DNA of 39,106 nucleotides from Candidatus Schekmanbacteria bacterium. Lineage in GTDB: Bacteria > CSSED10-310 > JACPHN01. The notes beneath the pieces are model-generated. The model searched no databases. It had not been told where the DNA came from and saw only the letters and a list, made by a program, of their open reading frames with translations. A program made the position numbers and the translations under genes. Of the stretch, positions 3,402 to 38,945 are shown piece after piece; position 1 is the first letter of the stretch, and every line of letters begins with the position of its first letter. The DNA lies in the NCBI GenBank assembly GCA_016188575.1, contig JACPHN010000077.1, positions 1 to 39,106 of the forward strand, read 5' to 3'.

Positions 3402-4642
3402 CGTTCAGGATTTCCCCTGCGGGCAGTGGTGGTGGCGGCGGTGTTCGAGTGCCGCAGACTCTCGTAGGCTTCCAACAGATCGGTGAGCTCGGCGGTCGGG
3501 CCCCGGCTCTCGGTGGCGGCGCTGAGGAGCAGATGCGCGCGCGGCACGTCGGGGCCATCCTGGCCGAGCGAATCGAGCAGGCGGTCGAGCTCGCCATCGA
3601 TCTCGGCAACGGCGCAGAGCACGTCTGCCAGGACCTCCGGATGTTCCTGTGCGCCCGGGGCCGGGCTGCCCGCCACGGCCGCCGCCGCGGCCGCGGAGGC
3701 GAGCGCGGCGGCTTCCTCGCGCGCCCCGACGAGCTCGAGCTGCGCGGCCATTCTCCCGTAGGTGCCCTCAAGCCGCGCGAGAAGGTGATCGACGTCGGCG
3801 ATCTGAGCGCCGGGAGAGAAGTCGGGGCCGAGATAGGGATTGCCGGAGAACGGGGCGGCGATCGCCGCGACGTCGCTGCGCGCGGCCGCCAGTCCGGACA
3901 CGAACGAGCGGGTGGCCTTGCTGGCGATGGCAATCGCTTGGAGCCGCGGCGCCCCCGGGTGAGCGGGGCGCGAGACCGCCGCGAGAAGAGCGTCCGGGCG
4001 CCGCTGAAGTAGGCCGGAGACGACCTGCTCGCAGCGCTTGCGAATCAGCAGCGCGGCGGCCGAATCCAGAATCTGCCGGGTCGCGGCGAGGTGGCGCTGG
4101 ACGTCGGCCACGGCCTCTTCCTGTTGCGCGAGCAATGCGGGGTCGCCGGCGACGACAGGTCCCGCGAGGAGTTTGTCCCGCATTCTTTCCAGCTCGGCAA
4201 GCGCGGCCGTGGCGCGGGCAACGGCAGTTTCCAGGCCGAGAATCTCGTGGTCGGGGCCCGGCACCGCGGCGGCCGCCGGCGCGCGGGCCAGGGCACCGAA
4301 AGGCGCGAGAACCAGCGTGAACGCCACCAACCCACCGGTACCCGCGAGCAGCACTCTGAGCCCGAAGCGTAGCGCCGGTCCGACGACTGCTCCGGCCGCT
4401 TCGAATGAGGTCGGCGTGAGCTCGAAGCCGGCGCCGAGCGCCAGCGCGACCACCATTCCCGACCACGCCGCGGCCTGTCGCGGCCTGGCCAGCGCGTCTG
4501 CCCGCCGCAAGCGGTCCAGCAGCGGGCGCCGAAAGATCCACGCCAACGATCCCGCCGCCAGCGCCGACACCCCGATCGCAAGCACCTCGAGGCCGCTGGC
4601 GGCGGTTCCGAGCAGGTGCCCGAAAAGCTCGACGGCAATCAC
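3398..4642 (-). CDS. unknown membrane protein with helical cytoplasmic domain
   Basis: 414 aa when started at the GTG at 4642, whose GTGA overlaps the stop of the upstream gene. A longer frame exists upstream but lies inside that gene and encodes Arg/Gly-rich junk. Not assignable to a named family. Three hydrophobic segments occupy the first 120 residues: VLAIGVSALAAGSLAWIF, WSGMVVALALGAGFEL and LRVLLAGTGGLVAFTLVLAPFG. The remaining 290 residues are Ala/Leu/Glu-rich and look mostly helical, with an alanine run (SAAAAAAAVAG) near the end. It ends by a 4-bp overlap with the ABC ATPase. Its place between a VIT/VWA protein and an ABC exporter suggests an accessory or coupling role at the inner membrane. 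This is an inference from position only. Confidence 0.7.
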   Translation of the reverse strand: MIAVELFGHLLGTAASGLEVLAIGVSALAAGSLAWIFRRPLLDRLRRADALARPRQAAAWSGMVVALALGAGFELTPTSFEAAGAVVGPALRFGLRVLLAGTGGLVAFTLVLAPFGALARAPAAAAVPGPDHEILGLETAVARATAALAELERMRDKLLAGPVVAGDPALLAQQEEAVADVQRHLAATRQILDSAAALLIRKRCEQVVSGLLQRRPDALLAAVSRPAHPGAPRLQAIAIASKATRSFVSGLAAARSDVAAIAAPFSGNPYLGPDFSPGAQIADVDHLLARLEGTYGRMAAQLELVGAREEAAALASAAAAAAVAGSPAPGAQEHPEVLADVLCAVAEIDGELDRLLDSLGQDGPDVPRAHLLLSAATESRGPTAELTDLLEAYESLRHSNTAATTTARRGNPER

Positions 4643-21165: not shown

Positions 21166-23020
21166 ATGCTGACGCGGCTCCGGGTGGCGAGCTTCAAGCT
21201 CTTTGACCAGGTGGACATCGAGCTCGGCGAACGAGTGATGTTCGTCGGACCGAACAATTGCGGCAAGACGTCGGCGCTCCAGGCGTTGGCGCTCTGGAGC
21301 ATCGGCGTTCGCTGCTGGGTGGAGAGGCGTGGGGCTGGCATCGTCCCGAAGGAACGCCCCGGCGTCACCATCAATCGCCGCGATCTCGTTGCCTTGCCGG
21401 TGCCTGCCGCCAACCTGCTCTGGCGCGATTTGCACCTCCGCGAAGGTTACAAGGCGAACGGCAGGCCGAAAACCCGCAACATCCCAATCGAGATCGACGT
21501 CGATGGCGTGGATTCTGCAAGGCGCTGGGCCACCTGCCTGGAGCTCGATTATGCAAACGAAGAGTCCTTCTACTGCCGTTCGCGGTTGGGTGCGGACGGC
21601 GCTCGGCTCGAGGTTCCTGTGGAGGCGGCGGCAGTGCGCATCGCTTACCTGCCACCGATGTCCGGGCTTGCCGCCAACGAGACGCGTCTGGACGAAGGAG
21701 CCATCGCCGTTCGCATCGGCGAGGGCCGCACCGCCGAGGTGTTACGCAACGTGTGCTGGCAGGTGCTCCAGAGGTCTACCGAAAGCTGGACGCATCTCGT
21801 CGAGCGCATGCAGGCGCTTTTCGCGATCCAGCTCGAGCCCCCTGAGTACATCAAGGAGCGCGGTGAGATCACGATGTCGTTCCGCACGTCGCGCGGGGTG
21901 CGGCTCGACCTGTCCGCAAGCGGCCGCGGCCAGCAGCAGACCTTGCTGCTGCTGGCGCACATGTCGGCCAACCCGGGCGCGGTGTTGTTGCTCGACGAGC
22001 CCGACGCCCACCTCGAGATCCTGCGCCAACGGCAGATCTATCAGGTTCTCTCCCAGGTCGCGTCCAGGACGGGAAACCAGATCATCGCGGCCAGCCATTC
22101 GGAAGTGATCCTCAACGAGGCGGCCGAGCGCGACATGGTCGTGGCGTTCATTGGCTCGCCGCATCGCCTCCGGGATCGCGGAGGTCAGCTCGCCAAGGCG
22201 CTCACGGAGCTGGGATTCGAGCACTACGTTCAGGCAGAGGAAACGGGCTGGGTTTTGTACCTGGAAGGATCGACGGACCTCGCTATCCTCCAGGCCTTTG
22301 CCGCGAGACTGGACCACCCCGCCTGCAAAGCTCTGGAACGCCCGTTCGTGCGCTACGTCGCCAACCAGCCGGCGCAGGCGCGGCGCCACTTCCATGCGCT
22401 CCGCGAGGCGAAGCCCGATCTGCTAGCAATCGCGCTCTACGACCGACTGGACAGCGGGCTACCGGCGGATCCGAGCCTGGCGCATCTAATAGGAAACTCG
22501 AGTTGCGAGGCCGTCCGTTTCATCCGGCGCGGGTCGGCGTAGCCGGTGGAAAACTAATAGGAAACTCGAGTTGCGAGGTCGTCCGTTTCATCCGGCGCGG
22601 GTCGGCGTAGCCGGTGGAAAACTGATGTGGAAGCGCCGCGAGATCGAGAGCTACCTTTGCACCCGGACGACGCTCCTCGCGTTCGCCGAGGCTCGCGCCG
22701 GCGAGCAGCAGGGGCCGCTGTTCGCGGCCTCGTGGCGCGCGGCGATGGAGGAATCCATCCGCGAGATCGAGGCGGCACTCACCGCTCTCGACAAGCCCGA
22801 CCCCTGGGGGCCCGACCTGAAGGTGAGCGATGAATTTCTCGATCCGTTGCTGAGGAAATTCTTCCAAAAGCTCCGGCGGTTCAGCGCGCTGGGCAAGACG
22901 GACTTCTACCTGCTCGTGCCGCTTGTCCCGGTAGCCGAGATCGATGGCGAGGTACGCGAGAAGCTCGATGCCATCGCCGGCGTTGCGGCCCGAGCGGTAC
23001 CACGAGGTGGCTGCGCCTGA
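21166..23020 (+). pseudogene. OLD-like AAA ATPase/TOPRIM gene split by a 136-bp insertion
   Basis: The frame opens at 21166 and now stops at 22540-22542. The C-terminal part continues in another frame from 22622 to 23020. Removing exactly 22486-22621 joins PSLAH to LMWKRREIESYL in frame and gives a protein of about 572 aa. Visible parts: Walker A GPNNCGKT (residues 28-35), LSASGRGQQQ, Walker B VLLLDEPDAHLE, and ASHSEVIL. The TOPRIM-like part has Glu367 in YLEGSTD, with Asp426 and Asp429 in YDRLD. Then comes RREIESYL, the match to the RREIENY box common in OLD-family proteins. OLD-type proteins are ATP-driven nucleases, often in phage defence. The split product loses its last 132 residues, so function is doubtful. 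Downstream translation from the second copy could make only a fragment. Confidence 0.8.
22486..22621. repeat. two tandem 68-bp units inserted in the OLD-like gene
   Basis: Copy 1 is 22486-22553 and copy 2 is 22554-22621. They differ at one base (C at 22511, T at 22579). Each unit starts CTAATAGGAAACTCGAG, contains the 10-bp palindrome AACTCGAGTT and a CCGGC...GCCGG inverted pair, and ends GGTGGAAAA. The unit was not noticed elsewhere in the window. Only removal of both copies restores the reading frame. Confidence 0.9.
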
Positions 23021-27390: not shown

Positions 27391-28551
27391 ATGACACACG
27401 GTCATCCCGGCACACCAAAAGATTCCCTGCCTTCGTTGCGGCAGATCCCACCAGCCGACCAAGGCGGACGGATTAGCCGACAAGGATTCGATTACCAAGA
27501 TCATGTCGGGGCGGCATTCTGCCTCGCGATGCATCGAGCCCCAGCCCTTCAAGAGATTTGGTTCGAGTCCCACGACGACCTCGTAATCTGCTGGAATGAC
27601 CAGCAAGCCACCGAGGTGTTTGAGTTCGTGCAAGTAAAGAACGAGAATCTTCGTTCGCGATACTCCGTCGCGGCGATCTCCCGAAGAGAACAGGGAGCCG
27701 TTGGTACATCATTGGCCGAGCGGTCGCTGAACAGAAGTCGATGCCGCGAGCGCACCCAGTTCCGGCTCGTGACCAGCTACGATACTGACGACGAGTTGGA
27801 ACCACTGAAGGTGCCGCTGGCCGACCGAGCCGAGCCGTCCAACGCCAAAAGACTAGGCGTCCTGAAGCAGGCGCTCTTGGAGAAGCTATCCGACGCGTCG
27901 CCCTCACAAGACGGCACCACGATCGATGCCTGGCTAGACCGCTGTCTCTGGGATAAACGTCCGGACACCATCGACGCGCTACGTGCTCTGAACTTGCTGG
28001 AATTGGAGGCGCTTCTTCAATCTGCCGGGCACGACCTGCCGCCCGACATGCGAGACGAACTCTACAGCCGGCTCCTCGCGCTGGTGAAGCAGATGTCGGG
28101 GCCTGGCGGCGCCAACGACTTTCGACTCTCGCGGCAAGCCCTCCTCACCTGGATGGAACAAGCGATTGCTAACCTACGAGAGGGACCTGCGACTCTGTCG
28201 AAACTTGCCGCCAAACTAGAGGCGGCGGGTCTGCGGGAAACATTTGGGAACGCCTCCGACCTTTATTGGGCGTACCGGCGGGAACGCCTCAGCCCCCGAT
28301 ATTCGGATCCTCGCTCGCTGATGCGAGTCGAGCAAGATGTCACTGCAGAGCTCAATCTATTGAAAAGCAGGCTCGATATAGGGCGCATCCAAGGCGGCCC
28401 CGCTTTCCACAATGCCTGCTTGGAAGCCCTGGAACAGCTTCGCGCTCGCGAGGAGCATGCAGGCCAGAAGGTATCCTTCGCGTACTTACAAGGCTATATG
28501 TACTTTCGGACGAACCGTTGTGTTCACCGATTTATGGAAGCACGGCCATGA
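27391..28551 (+). CDS. DUF4297/Cap4-like nuclease, effector of an ABC-3C-type system
   Basis: 386 aa, with AAGG five bases before the ATG. The N-terminal 100 residues match the DUF4297 (Cap4-type) PD-(D/E)XK nuclease fold. GGRISRQGFDYQDHVGAAFCL is the conserved entry segment, followed by the acidic pair Asp62-Asp63 in ESHDDLVI and the Gln-x-Lys motif VQVKNENL (Gln81, Lys83). These would form the DNA-cutting site. The remaining 280 residues are helical and unassigned. They probably hold the interaction part that binds the ATPase partner. The stop overlaps the next start by 4 bp (ATGA). In ABC-3C systems, described bioinformatically as phage-conflict modules, the variable first gene is a nuclease or other effector, held in check by the other two. 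The phage-defence role here is inferred. Confidence 0.75.
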   Translation: MTHGHPGTPKDSLPSLRQIPPADQGGRISRQGFDYQDHVGAAFCLAMHRAPALQEIWFESHDDLVICWNDQQATEVFEFVQVKNENLRSRYSVAAISRREQGAVGTSLAERSLNRSRCRERTQFRLVTSYDTDDELEPLKVPLADRAEPSNAKRLGVLKQALLEKLSDASPSQDGTTIDAWLDRCLWDKRPDTIDALRALNLLELEALLQSAGHDLPPDMRDELYSRLLALVKQMSGPGGANDFRLSRQALLTWMEQAIANLREGPATLSKLAAKLEAAGLRETFGNASDLYWAYRRERLSPRYSDPRSLMRVEQDVTAELNLLKSRLDIGRIQGGPAFHNACLEALEQLRAREEHAGQKVSFAYLQGYMYFRTNRCVHRFMEARP

Positions 28552-29120
28552 GATCGATCCGAAATCTCTCCGCCGTCCCCGCGGGAAGCGCCATCGCTTC
28601 AGACGATCTCCTCGAATACCATGCGGCCCGGATACTTCTCCTCCTTCTCATATGTGGAGCCAATGACGTCGCATCCAGGAGACGTCGGATAGACGGATTG
28701 ACAAAACTTGCGAAGCTCGACTTCTTTGCCCGTTACCCGGATTTTTTCTACCGTATAGCTCGAGAGCTCGGCCAGCATGTCGAGCTTCAACCCGTGACGC
28801 CCGAGGCCAAAATGGTTCGATACCACTACGGTCCATGGGATAAACGCTACTATCAGGTTCTCCCATATTTAGAGGCTCGAGGCTTGCTTGAAGTAAAGAA
28901 AGACGCAACTCGGAACCAGTTCTTATTTTACCTTACTCCTGCAGGTCAGACGATAGCGTCGGATCTCAAAGCCAAGCCCCAGTTTTCTAAACTGGCTTCT
29001 CATATGGCCAGAATTAAATCCGTTGTAGGTGGGAAGTCTGGAAATCAGCTAAAAAATATGATCTATAAGACCTTCGATCGGGAAGTGGCCAATCTTCGTC
29101 TCGGTGAGGTGATCGAGTAA
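28548..29120 (+). CDS. winged-helix middle component of the ABC-3C-type system
   Basis: 190 aa from the ATG at 28548, coupled to the nuclease gene by a 4-bp overlap; the longer frame lies inside that gene. The protein is small and basic-hydrophobic, with a winged-helix look. The helix RRRIDGLTKLAKLDFFARYPDF is the conserved entry of ABC-3C middle components. GPWDKRYYQVLPYLEARGLLEV and FLFYLTPAGQTIASDL give the recognition helix and wing typical of PadR-like folds. A hydrophobic stretch at residues 25-35 (AARILLLLLICG) is part of the fold rather than a membrane anchor. Such components are thought to link the ATPase to the effector and may sense DNA. It ends 1 bp before the ATPase gene starts. 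Confidence 0.72.
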   Translation: MRSIRNLSAVPAGSAIASDDLLEYHAARILLLLLICGANDVASRRRRIDGLTKLAKLDFFARYPDFFYRIARELGQHVELQPVTPEAKMVRYHYGPWDKRYYQVLPYLEARGLLEVKKDATRNQFLFYLTPAGQTIASDLKAKPQFSKLASHMARIKSVVGGKSGNQLKNMIYKTFDREVANLRLGEVIE

Positions 29121-29121
29121 A

Positions 29122-31026
29122 ATGGCTAGAACGCTAATAATCAAGACACTCAGCCGCGAGCGCGGCGACGGCGGCCATGAATCCCTTACGTTCTCCAAGG
29201 GCGTGAATCTCATCGTTGGCCCGCCGAATTCGGGGAAGTCGGCCTGGCTTAAGATGCTGGATTACTTATTTGGGGATCCAGATCCTCCTCAAGACGCCTT
29301 TACATCTGAGCTAGCAGAGAAATACGTCGCTGTCTCGGCAGATATGCAAATTGGTGACAAAGCACTGACACTACAGCGCCGGTGGGATCAACAAGGCTTC
29401 CGATCAAAAATTCTCGTCAATGGTGATGCCATTAGTGTAGACGATCTTTCGGACTTGATTCTAAACCACCTGGACATGCCCAATTTGCATTTTCCGAAGG
29501 GCAACCCCTACTCTGAACGAACGTGGCCTCGCCTCAGTTGGCGTATTCTCATGAGACACATTTATCGACGGGAGCGATTTTGGGCCGACATCGCCGATCG
29601 CCAACCCGAGTCGGAGCAACATGCTGCTTTGGTCATGTTCCTCGGACTAGCTCGACAATTGTTTCCGCCGGAATGGAATCAAGTCATTCAGGCGCGCAAA
29701 GACTTGACGAAACTCCAGGCCAAGCGCGAGCAGTTTGAAGAAGTCGCTGACCATATATCTCGGGAGGTCATTCCTAGCAACCTTCCCATGGCGCAGCTCA
29801 ATCCTATATCGCTGCTAGAGCGCATTCGGATTATCGAGCAACAGATCAGCCAAAATCTTTCTGCGCGCGAACGGATGCTCACACGACTGGCTGAGACGGA
29901 GTCACTGAGTACGACGCCACAAGCGCTTGAACTCTCGACCCAACGGGCCCAAACCATTTCATCTCTCATCAAAGTGCGGGCGAACTGGGAACGTGCAAAC
30001 GCTCGTTCCGAAGAGATAAACGATCTCTACACTACAGTACAATCAGAGCTAGAGCGACTCGAGCGGGCGATGGTCGCCGGGCAGATGCTGGCTGACCTTA
30101 AGATTACCCACTGTCCCGCGTGCGACCAAGAAATCAATAGTCAGCATGCGCCGGAGGGCGTATGCTTCCTCTGCCACCAGCATCTCCCAAGCACACGTGC
30201 TAGTGATCGCCTAGAGTTTGAGTTGGAGCAACTTCGCAAAGAACAGGCGGAACTAGGCCAACTGCGTGAGTCACTTCGAGCAGAACTTGTAACTCTCGCA
30301 CGTGAAGAAAAGGCCCTCCAAGAACGCGTTGAGCAAATAGACGGAGACTTACGACCGTTGCAGAGCAAATTTTCAGCTCTTTTCAATACTCAACTAGGAG
30401 TAATTGACTCGACCAGAGGTGCGCTGCAAGAACAACTTCGTTTGCTGGGACGGATCAAGACCCTTCTGGCCTACCGTGACCAACTAGATCGCGACATAGA
30501 CGCTGCGGCATCGAAGGTCGCCCAACTCGAATCGCTGGTCAACGACTTAATGGCTTCGGTGAGGTTTACGAGCACAAGCAGTGACATCGAAGATTCAATG
30601 CATCACTTCTTTGATGCCCTAAATCAGGGTATCTCCAAGTATGGCATCTCCAGCTCGTTTAGATGGTCTGGTAGTAGGGTTTCTCTTGATCTAAAAGAGC
30701 GGGGATTTCTTTTCAGGATTTCGGGTCGGAAATGGTCCAGCCAGCTTGGAGCGACAGCGGTGGTCCACTTCCTCTTGGCCTATCACTACGCGTTACTGTG
30801 CTTGACGCCCGATGAAGCGAGAAGGTACCCGGGTTTTCTAATTTTGGACTTCCCTGCTGAATTATTGGACGCAAAGACCATCGGCGATAAAGAAAATTAC
30901 TTGATAGAGCCCTTCGTTAATCTGTGTAAGGATACAACCACTCCGCTCCAAGTTATTATTGCGGGGCGCTCATTTCAAGAGATAGAAGATTGCCGGCGGA
31001 TTGAATTCAACCATGTTTGGCGATAG
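29122..31026 (+). CDS. Rad50-like ABC ATPase with zinc hook (ABC-3C-type system)
   Basis: 634 aa. An SMC/Rad50-type ATPase. Walker A is GPPNSGKS (residues 33-40). The first coiled-coil arm runs from about 195. The zinc hook is Cys331-PA-Cys334 ... Cys348-FL-Cys351. The returning arm is Leu/Glu/Arg-rich (FELEQLRKEQAELGQLRESLRAEL). The C-terminal half of the nucleotide-binding domain has a degenerate signature (GATAVVHFLLAYHYALL) and the Walker B-like FLILDFPAEL near 572. The coiled coil is much shorter than in Rad50, as usual for this class, which carries DUF3732-like sequence. It probably senses DNA ends or phage DNA and releases the nuclease encoded two genes upstream. All key motifs are intact. 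It ends 60 bp before the attC of this cassette. Confidence 0.8.
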   Translation: MARTLIIKTLSRERGDGGHESLTFSKGVNLIVGPPNSGKSAWLKMLDYLFGDPDPPQDAFTSELAEKYVAVSADMQIGDKALTLQRRWDQQGFRSKILVNGDAISVDDLSDLILNHLDMPNLHFPKGNPYSERTWPRLSWRILMRHIYRRERFWADIADRQPESEQHAALVMFLGLARQLFPPEWNQVIQARKDLTKLQAKREQFEEVADHISREVIPSNLPMAQLNPISLLERIRIIEQQISQNLSARERMLTRLAETESLSTTPQALELSTQRAQTISSLIKVRANWERANARSEEINDLYTTVQSELERLERAMVAGQMLADLKITHCPACDQEINSQHAPEGVCFLCHQHLPSTRASDRLEFELEQLRKEQAELGQLRESLRAELVTLAREEKALQERVEQIDGDLRPLQSKFSALFNTQLGVIDSTRGALQEQLRLLGRIKTLLAYRDQLDRDIDAAASKVAQLESLVNDLMASVRFTSTSSDIEDSMHHFFDALNQGISKYGISSSFRWSGSRVSLDLKERGFLFRISGRKWSSQLGATAVVHFLLAYHYALLCLTPDEARRYPGFLILDFPAELLDAKTIGDKENYLIEPFVNLCKDTTTPLQVIIAGRSFQEIEDCRRIEFNHVWR

Positions 31027-31780: not shown

Positions 31781-34700
31781 TTGACGACGTACGACTCAAC
31801 CACCAAGAACCTCCAGCTCGGAGACGTCGTCGCTGGTCTTGAGCCCGGCGAGCTCGTCGCGGTTCAGAGGGTCGAGCCCTTCGGCAGCAAGGTGCTCGTC
31901 GAGGGGATCGGCGCGACGACGCGCCGGCAGATCCGCTGGCCGCTGAGCCTCGAGGAGCTCGGTGCCCTCTCGAAGGTTCGAGGCGCCACGCACAGCTTCG
32001 ACGGCGACCCGAAGACCTCTCTGCTCGGCGCCGAGGCGGAGCGCATCCGCATCGCGCACCAGTTCGACCCGCTCTTCGCGGTCAACTCGAGCATCGTCGA
32101 TCCGCTGCCGCACCAGGTGGAGGCCGTCTACCGCTATCTCCTGCCCCTGCCGCGGATCCGCTTCCTGCTCGCCGACGACACGGGCGCCGGCAAGACGATC
32201 ATGACGGGGCTCCTCATCAAGGAGCTGCTGTTCCGCGGCGTCATCCAGAAGATCCTGGTCGTGACGCCTGGCGGGCTCACGAAGCAGTGGGCCGAGGAGG
32301 AGCTGCTCGGCAAGTTCGGGCTCTACGCGCCGATCGTCAACCGCGCCTCGTTCGACGCCGACCCTTCGCAGTTCTCGCGCGTCGACGAGGGCATCTTCGT
32401 CACGTCCGTCGACTTCATGGCGCGCAACGAGGCCTGCCTCAGCGCCGCCGCGCATGTGCCCTGGGACCTCATCGTCGTGGACGAGGCGCACAAGCTGTCC
32501 GCGTACGAGTACGGCTCCAAGATCGCGGAGAGCGCCCGCTACAAGGCGCTCAAGGAGCTGTCCCGCCGCGTGGACCACCTGCTGTTCCTCACCGCGACGC
32601 CGCACCGGGGCCGCAAGGACACCTTCAGGCGGCTTCTGCTGCTCCTGGACGAAGACCTCTTCCGGAAGGACGAGCATGTCGCCGACCGCGTGCGGGAGCA
32701 GACGGCCAGCTACCCTGACCCGGGGGCGGGCGACAAGTCGATCACCCGCGCGCGCAACCGCTTCTTCCTCCGGCGCCTCAAAGAGGAGATGGTCGACTGG
32801 GAGGGCGGCGCGCTCTTCAAGCCGCGGCACACGAAGACGGTCGGCTACGACCTGACGTCCGAGGAGAAGCAGCTCTACGACGCGGTCACACAGTACGTGC
32901 GGTCGAAGCGGCGAGAGGCCAAGGCGCGCAAGAATCGCCACGTCGAGCTGACGCTGCCCGTCATGCAGCGGCGACTCGCCAGCAGCATCTTCGCAATTAC
33001 GCGAACGCTGGAGAATCGGCTCCGCGCGCTGAACGAGGTGCTCGCCATCCTCCGCGACCCGAATCGCTCGGCCGCGGAGAAGAAGCGGCTCTTCGGCGGC
33101 GCCACCGATGCAGACGCCCCTCGCGACATCGGCGAGTACGAGGAGCTGAGCGAGGAGGAGCGGGACGAGATCGATCGCCGCATCTTCCGCCAAGTCCTCA
33201 CGTCGGACCCGGAGAAGGTCGAGCAGGAGCGCGACGAGATCGATCGCCTCTGCCGAACGGCGAGCGCCCTCAAGCACCACAACGAGGCGAAGCTCGTCGA
33301 GCTGCTGAGGGTCCTCGACTCCTCGGACGTGATCCGCGCCGAGGACGAGAAGCTCCTCAGCTTCACGGAGCACAAGGACACCCTGCGCAGCCTCGAGGAG
33401 CGCCTCACGAAGCGCGGCTACTCGGTGGCGACCATCCACGGGAGCCTGGACGTCGAGGCGCGGAAGCAGGCCCAGCGCGAGCTCCGGACCGCCGCGAAGG
33501 TGATGGTCGCGACCGACGCCGCCGGCGAGGGGATCAATCTCCAGTTCTGCCGCTACCTCATCAACTGGGACATCCCGTGGAACCCAAACCGCCTTGAACA
33601 GCGGATGGGGCGCATCCACCGGAACGGCCAGCAGGACGACGTCTGGGTCTACGACCTCGTCGCCCAGAACACGCGCGAGGGCGCCGTGCTGCAGCGCGTG
33701 CTCACCAAGATGGACGTCATGCGGGACCAGTTGGGCGACGACCGGGTCTACGACGTCATCGACGAATGGCTCGAAGGAGTCCCGCTGGTCGCGTTGATGG
33801 AGATGGCGATCGATGCCGAGGCCCCGGACGAAGGCGGAGCGGAGACAGACGAGGCGCTCAAGCAGGCCACGCAGGAGCGTGCCGAAGATCTCCTAGGGCT
33901 CCAGAAGAGCACGTCGTTGGCCTCCCGGCTCGATCTGCGCGCGGCCCGCGAGCTCCGGGACGCTTCGGACGAACGTCGCCTCCAGCCGCTGTTCGTCCAG
34001 CGCTTCTTCGCGCGGGCGTGGGCCGCCGCCGGCGGCACGATGCAGCGGGACGAGCACTTCCCGGTCTGGCAGTTGAGCGCCACGCCAACGGCGCTGCTCG
34101 ACCTCGCCCGCGAGCGGAAGGCTGCCGTCCCCGACCGGCTGGACACGCCCGTCCTCTTCGACAAGCAGCTCGTCAGCGTGGCGAGCAAGGTCCGCGTGCC
34201 CGAGCGCACGAAGCTCCTCGGTCCCGGGCACGCGCTCTTTGACACGCTCATCGAATGGGCGATCCGCGAGGCGCGGGCAGCGGGCCCTCGAAGAGCAGCG
34301 CCGGCTGTTCTACGTGGCGATCACTCGGGCGCGCCCGACGTTGGTGCTGTCCAGCGTGACGCGTCTCCCGCGTGCGGACGCGTGCCGGTTGGGGGCACGC
34401 GTCCAGGGGCACAGCAACCATGCCCCCACCGTCACGTCCCGCTTCCTGAACGACCTTGGCCCGTCGCGGCCTGCCGCGATATCCGGCGCCGCGATCCTCG
34501 CGCCAGCGGCAGCAGCCAGTGGAGGATCCCCGTGAGCACCGACTACTGCCCGCGGCTCATCGAAGCCTCGAATGACATGCCGGGTTCAATCGCCGACAGG
34601 GATTATCGACGGGCGCTACTGACCTATCTCGCGTTCTGGATCGACGGCGTCGCCGTATTCGGAAACTCGATGTGCCGCTGGAACGCAGCAAGGGAGGCGA

Positions 34701-35407
34701 TCCAGAAGGCGGTTGGCGAGGCCGTTCACCGTTTCTGGAGCTACGGCTTCCGCGGCGCCGACCTGATCGTCTCGAGCTACGGTCCGGCCGTCGGGGTCTT
34801 CGGCAAGTACGAGCGCGTCGAGCGCGCCGATGGCACGCCGGTCGCGGTACCCGAGCTTCTGGACTTCGCGCGCCAGGCCGCCCGCGACGCCATCGCCGGC
34901 GAGTTCCGCGGCGACAACCTCTCCACGCTCTACTACGTCTGGGCGAACCTCTACGGAGCCGCGGAGCAATCGTGGGACGACGCGCGGCTGGTCGTGCAGA
35001 TCGGCGGTGAGGCCGAGAGCGCCATGGACGTCGCCCGGCGCGACGGGGTCTTCGTCATTGATGGCCCGAAGTGCCGGCGCGCCTTACTCGCGGACCGAGC
35101 GGACCGGCGTGGGCTCGGGGTCGATCCCAACCCGCCGCTGATCGACGCCCTCCATCGCGCGATGCTGCTGTGGAAGAATGAGCAGCGGGGCGAGCTCGTC
35201 GGATACCTCGCGGAGCGCGGGCTGCTGGATGAAACCCGCTTCTGGATGCTCGCGCAGGCTCTCTTCGAGGTCCTCCCGCGCGACCGCGAGGACTCGAAGC
35301 TGGTGAGCGCGCTCCTCGGTGAGCGCGACACGTTGAGGAGCGGGGCCAAGCGCTCGGCTACGCCCAAAGCCCAACGGAGCTTCTTCGAGACAGGACACGG
35401 GAGATGA
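31781..35407 (+). CDS. SNF2-like helicase, open in frame into a DUF1156 fragment (chimera)
   Basis: 1208-aa open frame with a TTG start and AAGGGA just upstream. Residues 1 to about 832 are an SF2/SNF2-family helicase of the kind found with DUF1156 and DUF499 genes and similar to DrmD. The LGDVV entry is followed by motif I DDTGAGKT near 132-139, motif II DEAH at 234-237, LFLTATPHRG, then the C-terminal lobe HGSLDVEARKQAQ, ATDAAGEGINLQ and QRMGRIHRNGQQ. The homology stops near 34278 (IEWAIREAR). Next come about 85 residues of meaningless sequence, which is a UvrD-like fragment read in the wrong frame. From about 34532 the same frame is the DUF1156 remnant. The helicase motifs are intact but its C-terminal domain is missing. 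It starts 43 bp after attC 2. Confidence 0.82.
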   Translation: MTTYDSTTKNLQLGDVVAGLEPGELVAVQRVEPFGSKVLVEGIGATTRRQIRWPLSLEELGALSKVRGATHSFDGDPKTSLLGAEAERIRIAHQFDPLFAVNSSIVDPLPHQVEAVYRYLLPLPRIRFLLADDTGAGKTIMTGLLIKELLFRGVIQKILVVTPGGLTKQWAEEELLGKFGLYAPIVNRASFDADPSQFSRVDEGIFVTSVDFMARNEACLSAAAHVPWDLIVVDEAHKLSAYEYGSKIAESARYKALKELSRRVDHLLFLTATPHRGRKDTFRRLLLLLDEDLFRKDEHVADRVREQTASYPDPGAGDKSITRARNRFFLRRLKEEMVDWEGGALFKPRHTKTVGYDLTSEEKQLYDAVTQYVRSKRREAKARKNRHVELTLPVMQRRLASSIFAITRTLENRLRALNEVLAILRDPNRSAAEKKRLFGGATDADAPRDIGEYEELSEEERDEIDRRIFRQVLTSDPEKVEQERDEIDRLCRTASALKHHNEAKLVELLRVLDSSDVIRAEDEKLLSFTEHKDTLRSLEERLTKRGYSVATIHGSLDVEARKQAQRELRTAAKVMVATDAAGEGINLQFCRYLINWDIPWNPNRLEQRMGRIHRNGQQDDVWVYDLVAQNTREGAVLQRVLTKMDVMRDQLGDDRVYDVIDEWLEGVPLVALMEMAIDAEAPDEGGAETDEALKQATQERAEDLLGLQKSTSLASRLDLRAARELRDASDERRLQPLFVQRFFARAWAAAGGTMQRDEHFPVWQLSATPTALLDLARERKAAVPDRLDTPVLFDKQLVSVASKVRVPERTKLLGPGHALFDTLIEWAIREARAAGPRRAAPAVLRGDHSGAPDVGAVQRDASPACGRVPVGGTRPGAQQPCPHRHVPLPERPWPVAACRDIRRRDPRASGSSQWRIPVSTDYCPRLIEASNDMPGSIADRDYRRALLTYLAFWIDGVAVFGNSMCRWNAAREAIQKAVGEAVHRFWSYGFRGADLIVSSYGPAVGVFGKYERVERADGTPVAVPELLDFARQAARDAIAGEFRGDNLSTLYYVWANLYGAAEQSWDDARLVVQIGGEAESAMDVARRDGVFVIDGPKCRRALLADRADRRGLGVDPNPPLIDALHRAMLLWKNEQRGELVGYLAERGLLDETRFWMLAQALFEVLPRDREDSKLVSALLGERDTLRSGAKRSATPKAQRSFFETGHGR
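34281..34535 (+). pseudogene. C-terminal fragment of a UvrD/PcrA-like helicase
   Basis: It lies in a different frame from the helicase above. ALEEQRRLFYVAITRARPTL is motif VI of superfamily 1 helicases (RRLFYVAITRAR), followed by a family-like tail with TSRFLNDLGPSRP. It stops at the TGA at 34533-34535. Nothing upstream of Ala-Leu-Glu-Glu in this frame is helicase-like. So a junction near 34278 has joined the SNF2-like gene to the last 85 codons of a second helicase gene. The stop overlaps the GTG start of the DUF1156 remnant, which suggests these two were once neighbouring, coupled genes. Confidence 0.72.
34532..35407 (+). CDS. DUF1156-family protein lacking the methylase core
   Basis: 291 aa if it starts at the GTG at 34532, which has GGAGGA six bases upstream and overlaps the preceding stop (GTGA). 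DUF1156 proteins (COG1743) are large adenine-specific DNA methylases, several times longer than this. The piece keeps a short N-terminus (CPRLIEAS), then YRRALLTYLAFWIDGVAVFGNSMCRW, and the C-terminal region (GADLIVSSYGPAVGVFGKYERV, STLYYVWANLYG, LIDALHRAMLLWKNEQRGEL). No catalytic NPPF or DPPY motif occurs anywhere in it. So the catalytic middle is deleted and it cannot methylate DNA by itself. It may be translated separately or as the tail of the 1208-aa frame. It belongs to the defence module completed by DUF499 downstream. Confidence 0.65.
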   Translation: MSTDYCPRLIEASNDMPGSIADRDYRRALLTYLAFWIDGVAVFGNSMCRWNAAREAIQKAVGEAVHRFWSYGFRGADLIVSSYGPAVGVFGKYERVERADGTPVAVPELLDFARQAARDAIAGEFRGDNLSTLYYVWANLYGAAEQSWDDARLVVQIGGEAESAMDVARRDGVFVIDGPKCRRALLADRADRRGLGVDPNPPLIDALHRAMLLWKNEQRGELVGYLAERGLLDETRFWMLAQALFEVLPRDREDSKLVSALLGERDTLRSGAKRSATPKAQRSFFETGHGR

Positions 35408-35464
35408 TCAGCGATCCCCTCCTGGAACGTGTCAGAGAGATCGCAGAAAGAGGAGTCACCCTCT

Positions 35465-35785
35465 ATGGATGAGGAAACCCAACAGGTCGTTCGTGAATAC
35501 CGCGAAGGTCTTGAGAGTCTGTTCGGTGACCAGCTTGTCGGCATAACCCTCTACGGTTCCTTCGCCCGGGGAGAAGGGCGCGAGGGTTCAGATATCGACA
35601 TCTTGTGCGTCCTCGACGGCCCGTTCGACTACGGAGAGGCCATCCGGAGATCCTCCGAGCTGACCGCGAATCTGAGCCTGGCGCATGACGTCGTTCTGTC
35701 GCGGGTCTTCGTATCGGAGGCGGATTTCAAGACCCGCAACCTGCCATTCCTCATGAACGTCCGACGCGAAGGGGTGCCGGCGTGA
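35465..35785 (+). CDS. MNT-type nucleotidyltransferase (antitoxin-like)
   Basis: 106 aa from the ATG at 35465, with AGAGGAG about ten bases upstream; an in-frame GTG at 35429 is less likely. It is a minimal nucleotidyltransferase of the MntA/MJ0435 class. The signature GSFARGEGREGSDIDILCVL gives GSF at 31-33 and the metal-binding Asp43 and Asp45. MntA-type proteins can transfer AMP to their HEPN partner and silence it. The stop overlaps the HEPN start (GTGA), a typical two-gene toxin-antitoxin arrangement. All motif residues are intact, unlike the surrounding decayed genes. It sits between the DUF1156 remnant and the DUF499 gene, so it could guard or regulate that module. This is an inference. 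Confidence 0.85.
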   Translation: MDEETQQVVREYREGLESLFGDQLVGITLYGSFARGEGREGSDIDILCVLDGPFDYGEAIRRSSELTANLSLAHDVVLSRVFVSEADFKTRNLPFLMNVRREGVPA

Positions 35786-36186
35786 ACGAAGACCTCGAGT
35801 TGCTCATGACGAAGGCGCAGGAGAGCGTTTCGGCCGCGACGCTTCTCCTCGATCAAGGGTACCACGGTTTCGCCGCCTCCCGGGCTTACTACGCGATGTT
35901 CTACGTCGCCGAGGCGCTTCTGGCTTCTCTCGGGAAGTCGTACAGCAGTCACGCTGGCGTGCTCGGCGCCTTCGGACAGGAGTTTGCCAAGACCGGGAAA
36001 CTGGATGTCAAGTTTCATCGCTGGCTGATCGATGGGCAGGACATCCGGAATGTGGGCGACTACGGGGTGGGGACCGAGGTATCCAGAGAGCAGACCGTCG
36101 AGGTGATCTCCCGGGCTGAAGAGCTCATCGGGGTTGCCCAGACACACCTTCGTGGCGAGGGAGGGACCGAACATGACCGGTCTTAG
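35782..36186 (+). CDS. HEPN-domain protein (toxin-like partner of MNT)
   Basis: 134 aa from the GTG at 35782, coupled to the nucleotidyltransferase gene by a 4-bp overlap. It is a HEPN fold of the PF05168 type: HGFAASRAYYAMFYVAEALL is the core helix with Arg34, followed by SSHAGVLGAFGQEFAKTG and a C-terminal helix (SREQTVEVISRAEELIGVAQTHL). Toxic HEPN RNases carry an R-x4-6-H motif. Here the residues after Arg34 are AYYAMFYVAEA with no histidine in range, so RNase activity is uncertain and the protein may be a non-catalytic partner. Its 3' end overlaps the start of the DUF499 gene by 14 bp. It looks intact. Confidence 0.82.
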   Translation: MNEDLELLMTKAQESVSAATLLLDQGYHGFAASRAYYAMFYVAEALLASLGKSYSSHAGVLGAFGQEFAKTGKLDVKFHRWLIDGQDIRNVGDYGVGTEVSREQTVEVISRAEELIGVAQTHLRGEGGTEHDRS

Positions 36187-38945
36187 ACCCTGGTACGCAG
36201 TCGCCACGCCGCACGAGGACATCCGCAAGGGCAGGCTAAGCGAGGCCGTCTTCGCCGCCAACGTCTGGGCCGTCGTCCAAGGAACGGCCCCGGAGGTCTA
36301 CCTCGATCCCGAGGAGTTCTTCCGCAAGAGTACATGACCAACGGCCTCGCGACGATGCTCTCCCACGTGGCGCGAGCGCTCTCGGGGTCCAAGGACGCCG
36401 GCGACCGTGTCATCAGCCTCCAAACCTCGTTCGGCGGCGGAAAAGCGCACACGCTAGTCGCCCTCTGGCACCTGGCCAGCACACAGACGCCATCCGGACC
36501 TCGCCGGCCTGTGCGGCCGTGCGCCGAGCTGTCGGCGGCGAGCTGCCCGCCGGGCTCAAGGCCGTGGCCGTCTTCACAAACCGGACCTGCGATGCGACGC
36601 AGGGCCGCCGCACGCCCGACGGGATTCAAACCCGTACGCTCTGGGGCGAGCTCGCCGCTCAGCTCGGAGGGCAGGAGCTCTACGAGAAGGTGCGCGCCAA
36701 CGACGAGACGCAGCGCACGACTCAGGGCCTGTTCGCTGACGTGCTCCAGGCGGCCGCTCCCTGCCTGATCCTCCTCGACGAGCTCGCCGACTACTGCGTG
36801 GGGGCCGCCGCCGTCCCAGTAGGCGACAGCACCCTCGGCGACCAGACGATCTGCTTCATCCAGGAGCTGACCGAGGCCGTGCAGGAGGTTTCCGGCGCCG
36901 TCGTCGTCGCCACGCTGCCGGCCAGCAAGATGGAGGTGGCCCAGAGCGAGAAGGGGCAGGAAGCCTTCGTTACGCTGGAGAAGCGGTTCTATCGGCTCGG
37001 TGCCGACGTGAAGCCGGTAGCCGACGAGGAGATCTACGACGTCGTCCGCACCCGCCTGTTCGAGTCCGTCAGGCCGCAGGGCGATCCCGACTACCCCAAG
37101 AAGGTCGCTGCCGCCTACCAGAGCATGTACACGGATCACGAGCGCGAGGTGCCCTCCGAGGTGTGCAAGGCGAGCTACCGAGAGGACATCGAGCGCGCGT
37201 ACCCGTTTCACCCCGCGCTCATGGACGCGCTCTACAAGCGCTGGGGGAGCCACCCGGACTTCCAGCGGACGCGCGGCGTGCTCCGGCTGCTAGCCACCAT
37301 CGTCGGCGACCTGTGGCACCGCCGCGATGCGACGACCCAGTCTCAGCCCCTCATCCAGCCGTGCCACGTGCAGTGGGGCCTGGATCCCCTGGGCGCGGCG
37401 CTGACGCGCCTTTGGGGCCAGGCCTACCAGTCGGTCGGCGCGGCCGACATCGTCGGCGAGAAGTCGAACGCCGGCATCTTCGACGAGGAGCGCGGGGACG
37501 AGTACCGGCGCGAGGATATCGGCCGGGGGATCGCGTCGGCGATCTTGCTCGGATCCTTCGGGGGCCAAGGGGATCGCTCGGGCTCCAGCGCCAAGGACGT
37601 CAAGGTCGCCTGTTCGCGCCTTGGGCTGAACTGGAGCTACACGGACGGCGCCCTGCTCGAGTTGGAGAACCGCTGCTTCTACCTGCACACGGCCTCGGCC
37701 GGAAACCTCGGGAAGCGCTACTGGTTCGGCACCAAGCCCACGCTGAACAAGCTCGTCGTGCAGTACCGCCAGCGCGTCGCCGCGGAGGATTTCGAGCAGG
37801 AGATCATCGAGAGCCTGAACGAGCGCATCCGCTCGCTGAGCCGCCAAGCTGCGACCTGGCGGGTGGTCGTGGATCCAAACGTGGAGCTGCCCGAGCAAAA
37901 GAGCCTCGCGCTCCTGCTCCTGCCGCCGGCGCTGGCCTACGGCGACGACCAGGCATCCCAGAAGCCGGTCCGGGACAGGGTCATGGAGATCAGCCAACGC
38001 TGCGGGGGCAAGGACCGCCACTACCGGAACACGCTCGTGTTCCTCGCCGCGAGCAGCCGGGGCGTGTCCAAGCTCAGGCGTGCATTCCGGGAGCGAGAAG
38101 CGCTCCTTGGAGTGCGCCGCGACTACTCCGAGCAGCTCGCCGAGGACCAGCGGGAGGATCTCCGGAAGCGGCTCGATGAGGCCGAGCGCATGGCGATCGA
38201 GACGCTCGGCCCCCGGTACGTCGTGGCGCTCCGCGTCCACCGCCAGGAAGTCGAGGTCGCCACCCTCACGGACGCTCGTGCCGCCCTCGACGACCACCTG
38301 GAGTACCTGTGGACCGCGCTCGTGGATGACGAGGAGTGGATCCTCCGCCGCGTCGGCGGCGTCACTCTGGAAAAGGCCGGGCTCGTGCCGAAAGAGGGTG
38401 CGTTTCGCGTCAAGGACGCGGTGGACGCGTTCCGCCGGTTCACGGACAAGCCGCTCGTCGCCTCGAAGGAGGCCGTCATCAACGGGCTGACCCACGCATG
38501 TGCGGACGGGCTCATCGGCATAGCTCGCGGTCCGAGCGCGACAACCCCACAGGCGCGCTACTGCCGCACGTCCGTGTCCATCGACCCCAGTGAGGACGGG
38601 GTGTGGATCATCCCCCCGTTCACGGAGGAGACGAAGCCGGCGACGACGTGCGGGAGGGACACCGTCACGCCGCAGCGCCCAGCGCCACCCGTCCGGCGCG
38701 TCCGGATCGAGGGAGCTCTCCTCCTGGAGAGCTACAACGAGCTCTTCCGCTGCTTCGTCGCACCCGCGGCCCGCATGAACCTCAAGCGGCTGACGCTGGG
38801 TGTCCAGTTCCGCCTCGAGGCACGGGACTCCGCGCCGCTTGACCCCAACGACCCCGCCCTCAAGGCGATGCGGGAGGCTGCTCGACAGCTCGGATTGGAT
38901 CTCCAGGTGGAGATCGAGACGGATGAGAACCAGAGAGGGGTCTAA
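36173..38945 (+). pseudogene. DUF499 AAA-type ATPase (COG1483) with two frameshifts
   Basis: Three frames together give one DUF499-like protein of about 920 aa. Frame 1 (36173-36337) reads LRPWYAVATPHEDIRKGRLSEAVFAANVW and ends after PEEFFRKST. Frame 2, from about 36331, reads YMTNGLATML and then the P-loop region LQTSFGGGKAHTLVALWHLA. Frame 3 takes over at about 36480-36486 (HTDAIRTSPAC) and is open to 38945. It includes CLILLDELADYC (Walker B) and EKRFYRLGADVKPV. Each shift is explained by loss of one base. So either the gene is decayed or the contig has two base-calling errors within about 160 bp. The longest piece, starting at the GTG at 36519, would lack the P-loop. In this family the ATPase works with the DUF1156 methylase and helicase. 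The stop codon lies in the R'' box of the last attC. Confidence 0.78.

What the first reader, a model, noticed from the sequence alone, without database searches (positions are those of the whole stretch)
22486..22621. OLD-like defence gene broken by exactly two copies of a 68-bp unit
Excising both copies (136 bp) restores SLAH-LMWKRREIESYL in frame, while removing one does not. The copies differ at one base. Each contains the AACTCGAGTT palindrome and a CCGGC/GCCGG pair. A tandem insertion that fits the gene so precisely suggests a small mobile or site-specific repeat, or a reversible switch.
Basis: partly seen in the sequence, partly recalled or inferred. Interest (0 to 1): 0.65.

Follow-up and report, generated by a model that had tools for sequence, protein, structure and literature searches.

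The report
Tandem mini-IS110 elements splitting defence gene
A probable anti-phage gene is cut in two by two head-to-tail copies of a 68-bp jumping element, one of about 33 copies in this genome, which looks like a stripped-down IS110 insertion sequence that must borrow its enzyme and probably its guide RNA from full-length relatives.

Summary
Two copies of a 68-bp unit, differing at one base, interrupt an AAA-ATPase/OLD-like gene. Homologues up to 73% identical run across the point without a gap, so the 136 bp is an insertion. The unit is not unique to this gene: 33 copies lie at 31 places in this genome and none in about 385 other genomes searched.

Copies have no inverted repeats and no target duplication. 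They sit directly after a YATYAG target, and their own right end (CYATYAG) imitates that target. Three copies are identical at unrelated places, so the family moved recently.

The unit joins the first 42 bp and last 26 bp of an IS110-family element in the same genome. It lacks the transposase gene and the roughly 200-nt non-coding region where IS110 elements keep their bridge RNA. Best reading: a non-autonomous IS110 derivative moved in trans. The tandem arises because the element's end is itself a target; 4 of 31 places show such head-to-tail neighbours.

A reversible switch is possible, since IS110 elements excise precisely, but nothing shows it. The gene is best called disrupted. Trans-mobilisation and the bridge RNA are inferred. 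I found no described IS110-derived miniature element in the papers searched.

The parts
22486..22553 (-). Copy A of the 68-bp element. In element (minus-strand) orientation it starts TTTTCCACCGGC at 22553 and ends TTTCCTATTAG at 22486
   Evidence: 102.8 bits against the family model
22554..22621 (-). Copy B of the 68-bp element, next to the chromosomal target; differs from A only at 22579
   Evidence: 105 bits
22622..22629 (-). Chromosomal target CACATCAG (minus strand), inside the interrupted gene; the AG next to the element is present in 30 of 30 logo copies
22512..22553 (-). Left-end (LE) part of copy A, element positions 1-42; positions 15-42 match the left end of the IS110 derivative at C162 at 27 of 28 bases of the family consensus (same segment 22580-22621 in copy B)
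22486..22511 (-). Right-end (RE) part of copy A, element positions 43-68; the last 19-20 bp match the end of the IS110 element at and just after its transposase stop codon (same segment 22554-22579 in copy B)
22486..22492 (-). Target-like terminus CTATTAG at the right end; the same sequence at 22554-22560 is the junction where copy A follows copy B
21166..22485 (+). N-terminal 440 codons of the interrupted AAA_21/AAA_15 ATPase (AriA/GajA/OLD-like); the ORF now runs 18 codons into the element and stops at 22542
22622..23020 (+). C-terminal 132 codons of the same gene (LMWKRREIESYLC...), cut off from the N-terminal part

Best explanation
The 136 bp is two head-to-tail copies of a 68-bp non-autonomous IS110-family insertion element. 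Shown: each copy is LE 1-42 joined to the last 26 bp of RE of an IS110-type element of this genome; it carries no transposase and none of the roughly 200-nt non-coding region between them; copies insert directly 3' of a YATYAG target without duplicating it; the element's own right end repeats that target motif. Inferred: a full-length IS110 copy supplies recombinase and bridge/seek RNA in trans; the RE-LE junction of an excised circle recombines at a YATYAG core; the right end of a resident copy can serve as the next target, which gives tandem pairs. In the window one copy entered at CATCAG inside an OLD-like defence gene, and a second followed at the first one's end (or a dimer entered, or the copy duplicated). 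The gene is now split after codon 440 and probably inactive.
For: Dispersed family: 33 strong matches at 31 places in one genome. Logo of 30 copies: sharp ends, left flank CNCATYAG (AG 30/30), element end CYATYAG, right flank without information. Left flank and right end are independent (148 of 248 matching positions, shuffle mean 152, p 0.84), and the right end tracks the element body (Mantel p 0.03) while the left flank does not (p 0.20), so the left flank is target and the right end belongs to the element, with no target duplication. Three identical copies at unrelated places: recent movement. Empty site confirmed by homologues. Parent: IS110 transposase C-termini (PF02371) at C273 and C198 are followed at once by CTCGAGTTTCC(TACT/TGCC)AG. 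The C162 derivative has LE from element position 12, 248 nt of leader, MELLYPRCAG (compare MQVVHPICAGIDVHK in L065), then KEAA-stop and the same RE. Head-to-tail neighbours at 4 of 31 places: window, L009, L010, L012. The leader holds ATTAG twice and a 14/15 copy of the RE-LE junction (0 of 300 shuffles reach 14). A mini-IS with only LE 29 bp and RE 16 bp moves with transposase and seekRNA in trans (ISEc21, PMC11187229).
Against: No intact full-length parent is assembled: the C162 and C273 contigs end inside the IS, so parent LE positions 1-11 and most of the transposase are not seen, and PF01548 was not found in this particular element. The target is informative on one side only, whereas known IS110 targets usually have two halves. 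The leader RNA has no unusual folding energy (z 0.49) and no Rfam match; the 68-bp unit shows no compensatory changes. No movement, circle or RNA was observed.
Confidence: 0.8

Rival explanations
1. Reversible switch: the tandem copies are cut out precisely by an IS110 recombinase in trans, turning the defence gene back on in part of the population, as IS492 does for an exopolysaccharide gene (the IS492 phenotype is from my own knowledge).
For: IS110 recombinases excise scarlessly and form circles (PMC11208160); precise excision of IS492 is cited there and in PMC11208158. The junctions are intact and both flanks still encode the complete homologous protein.
Against: No reads; no recombinase in the element; no intact parent seen; most copies lie outside predicted genes, which suggests a general mobile element and not a dedicated switch.
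Confidence: 0.07
2. PATE/REP-like element moved by an IS200/IS605-type Y1 transposase, which also inserts 3' of a short one-sided target without duplication.
For: One-sided target without duplication; 8 Y1_Tnp genes in the genome.
Against: None of the Y1 genes has a family copy next to it (positions). Both ends of the unit are found on IS110-type elements instead. No supported hairpin covariation.
Confidence: 0.06
3. The tandem state arose by replication slippage or unequal recombination of one inserted copy, or is an assembly effect; only the single insertion is transpositional.
For: The two copies differ at one base and are each other's nearest relatives.
Against: L009 holds a tandem of two clearly different copies, and L010 and L012 hold a 68-bp copy abutting an IS110 end, so end-to-end insertion happens in this genome. 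This rival changes only the last step.
Confidence: 0.3
4. The 112-bp segment starting at ATTTCCAC (L010 4071-4182) is the true complete IS110 derivative with a short left end, and the 68-bp family only shares its right end.
For: A CTATTAG/ATTTCCAC junction-like sequence lies about 50 nt before the ATG.
Against: C213 and C162 stay 96% identical for about 100 nt upstream of that point, so it is not an element boundary; element positions 15-42 are found at the head of the longer leader; a left end this short would leave no room for the usual upstream non-coding region.
Confidence: 0.1

Closest known systems
IS110-family insertion sequences with bridge RNA / seekRNA (IS621, ISEc21; PMC11208160, PMC11187229)
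   Same: No inverted repeats, no target duplication, sequence-specific target, transposase with PF02371, longer non-coding leader upstream of the transposase gene, very short right end, right end resembling the target
   Different: The 68-bp element carries neither transposase nor leader RNA; target information lies on the left side only; full-length parent not assembled
MITEs (reviewed in PMC10969869)
   Same: Short, non-coding, multi-copy internal-deletion derivative that shares its ends with an IS of the same genome and mostly lies between genes
   Different: No terminal inverted repeats and no target duplication. The review mentions neither IS110 nor an IS110-derived MITE; its only IS1111 passage has the IS inserting into a MITE
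IS492 of Pseudoalteromonas atlantica (IS110 family; precise excision)
   Same: IS110-type element interrupting a gene, in principle removable without a scar
   Different: IS492 carries its own transposase; excision here is not shown
OLD/GajA/AriA-type ATPases (anti-phage)
   Same: N-terminal AAA_21/AAA_15 ATPase; PADLOC profiles AriA, GajA and Old match; lies near other defence genes
   Different: No assignable complete system; the C-terminal fragment matches no Pfam family; the gene is split

Membership tests
IS110 family (claimed parent) | Transposase with C-terminal PF02371 domain | tested here: met
   C273 and C198 genes ending at the shared RE match PF02371 at 2e-18 and 2.2e-20
[quoted passage not shown]
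   Contigs end inside the gene; the C162 and C213 derivatives keep only MELLYPRCAG. PF01548 was found in other IS110 copies of the genome
IS110 family | No terminal inverted repeats and no target duplication | tested here: met
   Logo and independence test
IS110 family | Sequence-specific target flanking the element | tested here: met
   CNCATYAG left flank, AG 30/30; right flank without information
IS110 family | Long non-coding region upstream of the transposase gene (IS110 type) | tested here: met
   In the C162 derivative: 248 nt held plus 11 nt of LE missing at the contig end, before ATGGAGCTACTG
IS110 family | Leader transcribed into bridge/seek RNA; circular intermediate | not testable with these tools
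   Candidate guide-like segments only; no RNA or read data
MITE | Short, no ORF, multi-copy, ends shared with an autonomous IS | tested here: met
MITE | Terminal inverted repeats and target duplication | tested here: not met
   so it works like a MITE but is not one in the strict sense
IS200/IS605 PATE | Ends shared with a Y1-transposase element | tested here: not met
   8 Y1_Tnp genes, none next to a family copy
Phase-variable switch (IS492-like) | 0-copy and n-copy states in the same population | not testable with these tools
   No reads available
OLD-family nuclease | SMC/ABC-like ATPase plus TOPRIM domain | tested here: inconclusive
   ATPase met (AAA_21 7e-18, AAA_15 5e-15); TOPRIM not recognised by Pfam in either fragment

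The most novel reading that the evidence does not exclude
The tandem mini-IS110 is an off/on switch of an anti-phage gene: the bridge-RNA-guided recombinase of a full-length relative removes and re-inserts it in trans, so defence is phase-variable by RNA-guided recombination.
Probability: 0.06. Interest if true: 0.8.

Novelty: new variant of a known kind. Interest (0 to 1): 0.5.

Why it matters
IS110 elements became prominent because their bridge RNA directs recombination. A natural family of 68-bp derivatives that keeps only the two ends would show that these elements are parasitised in trans, as MITEs parasitise other transposases. It would define a minimal natural donor (42 + 26 bp) and show that an element's own end can act as a target, so that tandem arrays build up. 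It also gives a concrete case of a defence gene broken by such an element.

Tried and rejected
Structured-RNA reading of the unit: fold z-scores -0.1 to -0.8 and no compensatory pair among 31 copies; no Rfam match. CRISPR-like or regulatory array: copies are mostly single and carry a transposition-type logo. Spread to other genomes: none convincing in 386 genomes (only a 38-bp 87% match in G036, inside what looks like coding sequence), none in viral contigs for one exact 32-bp pattern, none in plasmids. AACTCGAGTT palindrome as a functional site: only 7 of 31 copies keep it. Full-length IS110 parent elsewhere: nearest transposases are about 50% identical with unrelated ends. An early reading, that the C162 derivative starts at ATTTCCAC, was dropped.

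Full report
WHAT WAS CLAIMED AND WHETHER IT IS THERE. The window holds one tandem array, 22486-22623, period 68. Two full units (22486-22553, 22554-22621) differ at one base. The ATPase ORF beginning at 21166 is in frame for 440 codons to 22485; the remaining 132 codons start at 22622. Homologues in other genomes, up to 73% identical, align on both sides of this point. In L079 (572 aa) the alignment closes without a gap, and 440 + 132 also makes 572. The 136 bp is therefore an insertion that splits the gene.

WHAT THE UNIT IS. The unit occurs 33 times at 31 places in the same 9.2-Mb genome (BLAST; covariance model) and in none of about 385 other genomes, including seven of the same phylum. The family has sharp edges. 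In element orientation (minus strand of the window) the left flank reads CNCATYAG, with AG in 30 of 30 copies. The element reads TTTTCCACCGGCWHCGCCGACCCGCGCCGGATGAAACGGACGACCTCGYAACNYGAGTTTCCYATYAG. The right flank carries no information. The left flank varies independently of the element's right end, and the right end follows the body of the element. So the left YATYAG is target and the right YATYAG is part of the element; no target sequence is duplicated. Mean pairwise divergence is 14%, yet three copies at unrelated places are identical: an old family with recent movement. Most copies lie outside predicted genes (rough gene calls); the window copy pair is the only one clearly inside a gene.

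THE PARENT. Two IS110-family transposase genes (PF02371) end in this genome with the element's right end: stop codon, then CTCGAGTTTCC-TACTAG (C273, L012, followed at once by a 68-bp copy) or CTCGAGTTTCC-TGCCAG (C198, L040). At the end of contig C162 lies a longer derivative. It begins, where the contig breaks off, with element positions 12-42 (27 of 28 identical over positions 15-42), continues with about 200 nt of non-coding leader, then ATG GAG CTA CTG TAC CCG CGC TGT GCG (MELLYPRCA, resembling the MQVVHPICAGIDVHK start of another IS110 in the genome), then directly the last codons KEAA-stop and the same right end. The 68-bp unit is thus left end 1-42 joined to the last 26 bp of the right end, with leader and transposase gene missing. 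Its position 42/43 junction lies where similarity to the left end stops and similarity to the right end begins. Contigs break inside these elements, as expected if full-length copies are repeated, so the intact parent is not seen.

HOW IT MOST LIKELY WORKS. IS110 elements excise as circles and insert at specific targets under a bridge or seek RNA encoded in the leader, without target duplication (PMC11208160; PMC11187229). For ISEc21 a mini-IS with 29 bp of left end and 16 bp of right end moves when transposase and seekRNA are supplied separately. The natural 42 + 26 bp unit exceeds that minimum. I infer that a full-length copy acts in trans. The leader contains ATTAG twice and a 14-of-15 match to the RE-LE junction (no shuffle of 300 reaches 14), a plausible trace of guide function; its fold is not unusual and I could not test it. 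The repeated target motif at the element's right end explains the tandems. Head-to-tail neighbours occur at 4 of 31 places: window (68+68), L009 (two different 68s), L010 (IS110 derivative + 68), L012 (IS110 + 68). Random insertion would almost never produce such exact abutment. In the window the second copy could also have come from slippage, since the two are each other's closest relatives.

THE SWITCH. Precise excision is a property of this family (IS492 precedent, cited in PMC11208158 and PMC11208160). The locus is compatible with it, but no data here show a second state. I hold it at 6-7%.

THE GENE. The N-terminal part matches AAA_21/AAA_15 and PADLOC profiles NsnB, AriA, GajA and Old. 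The C-terminal part matches nothing in Pfam. Downstream genes match Lamassu (LmuA/HamA-type nuclease, LmuC, LmuB) and Hma (HmaA helicase, HmaC ATPase) profiles, so the interrupted gene lies next to a defence island.

NOVELTY. MITEs are well known, but strict MITEs have inverted repeats; this family has none. A 2024 review of prokaryotic MITEs mentions no IS110-derived one. My searches for IS110 with MITE, miniature or non-autonomous gave no description; the paper library is partial, and of the papers listed I looked inside only a few. I therefore call it a new variant of a known kind.

Noticed in passing
27391-31026 (+): Lamassu-like operon: Cap4/LmuA-HamA-type nuclease, LmuC and LmuB matches, downstream of the interrupted gene
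   Followed up: partly
31781-38945 (+): Hma-type genes: SNF2 helicase HmaA (1.8e-157), a PDC-S09 candidate defence protein at 35429-35785, and DUF499/HmaC ATPase; with the above, a defence island
   Followed up: partly
L009:3996-4131, L010:4003-4380, L012:4014-4556: Other head-to-tail arrangements of the family: two different 68-bp copies; IS110 derivative + 68; IS110 transposase end + 68
   Followed up: yes
L010:4071-4380 and L039 from 4071: Two internally deleted IS110 derivatives that keep leader sequence, the first ten codons and the last codons; in L039 (C213) the distal left end is replaced by other sequence next to another transposase-like ORF
   Followed up: partly
22571 (+), inside copy B: A TTG with an AGGA about 8 nt upstream would let the C-terminal fragment start inside the element; TTG is not conserved among copies (GTTGCG or GTTACG)
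   Followed up: no
element positions 13-14 and 53-54 (family alignment A1): Two dinucleotides vary far more than most of the element body; the reason is unknown
   Followed up: no
L016 around 4120-4150; L050: A REP-like palindrome CCCCGGCCTGAAGGCCGGCATCC occurs at two places; the genome has 8 Y1_Tnp genes, so a separate REP/RAYT-type system may exist
   Followed up: no
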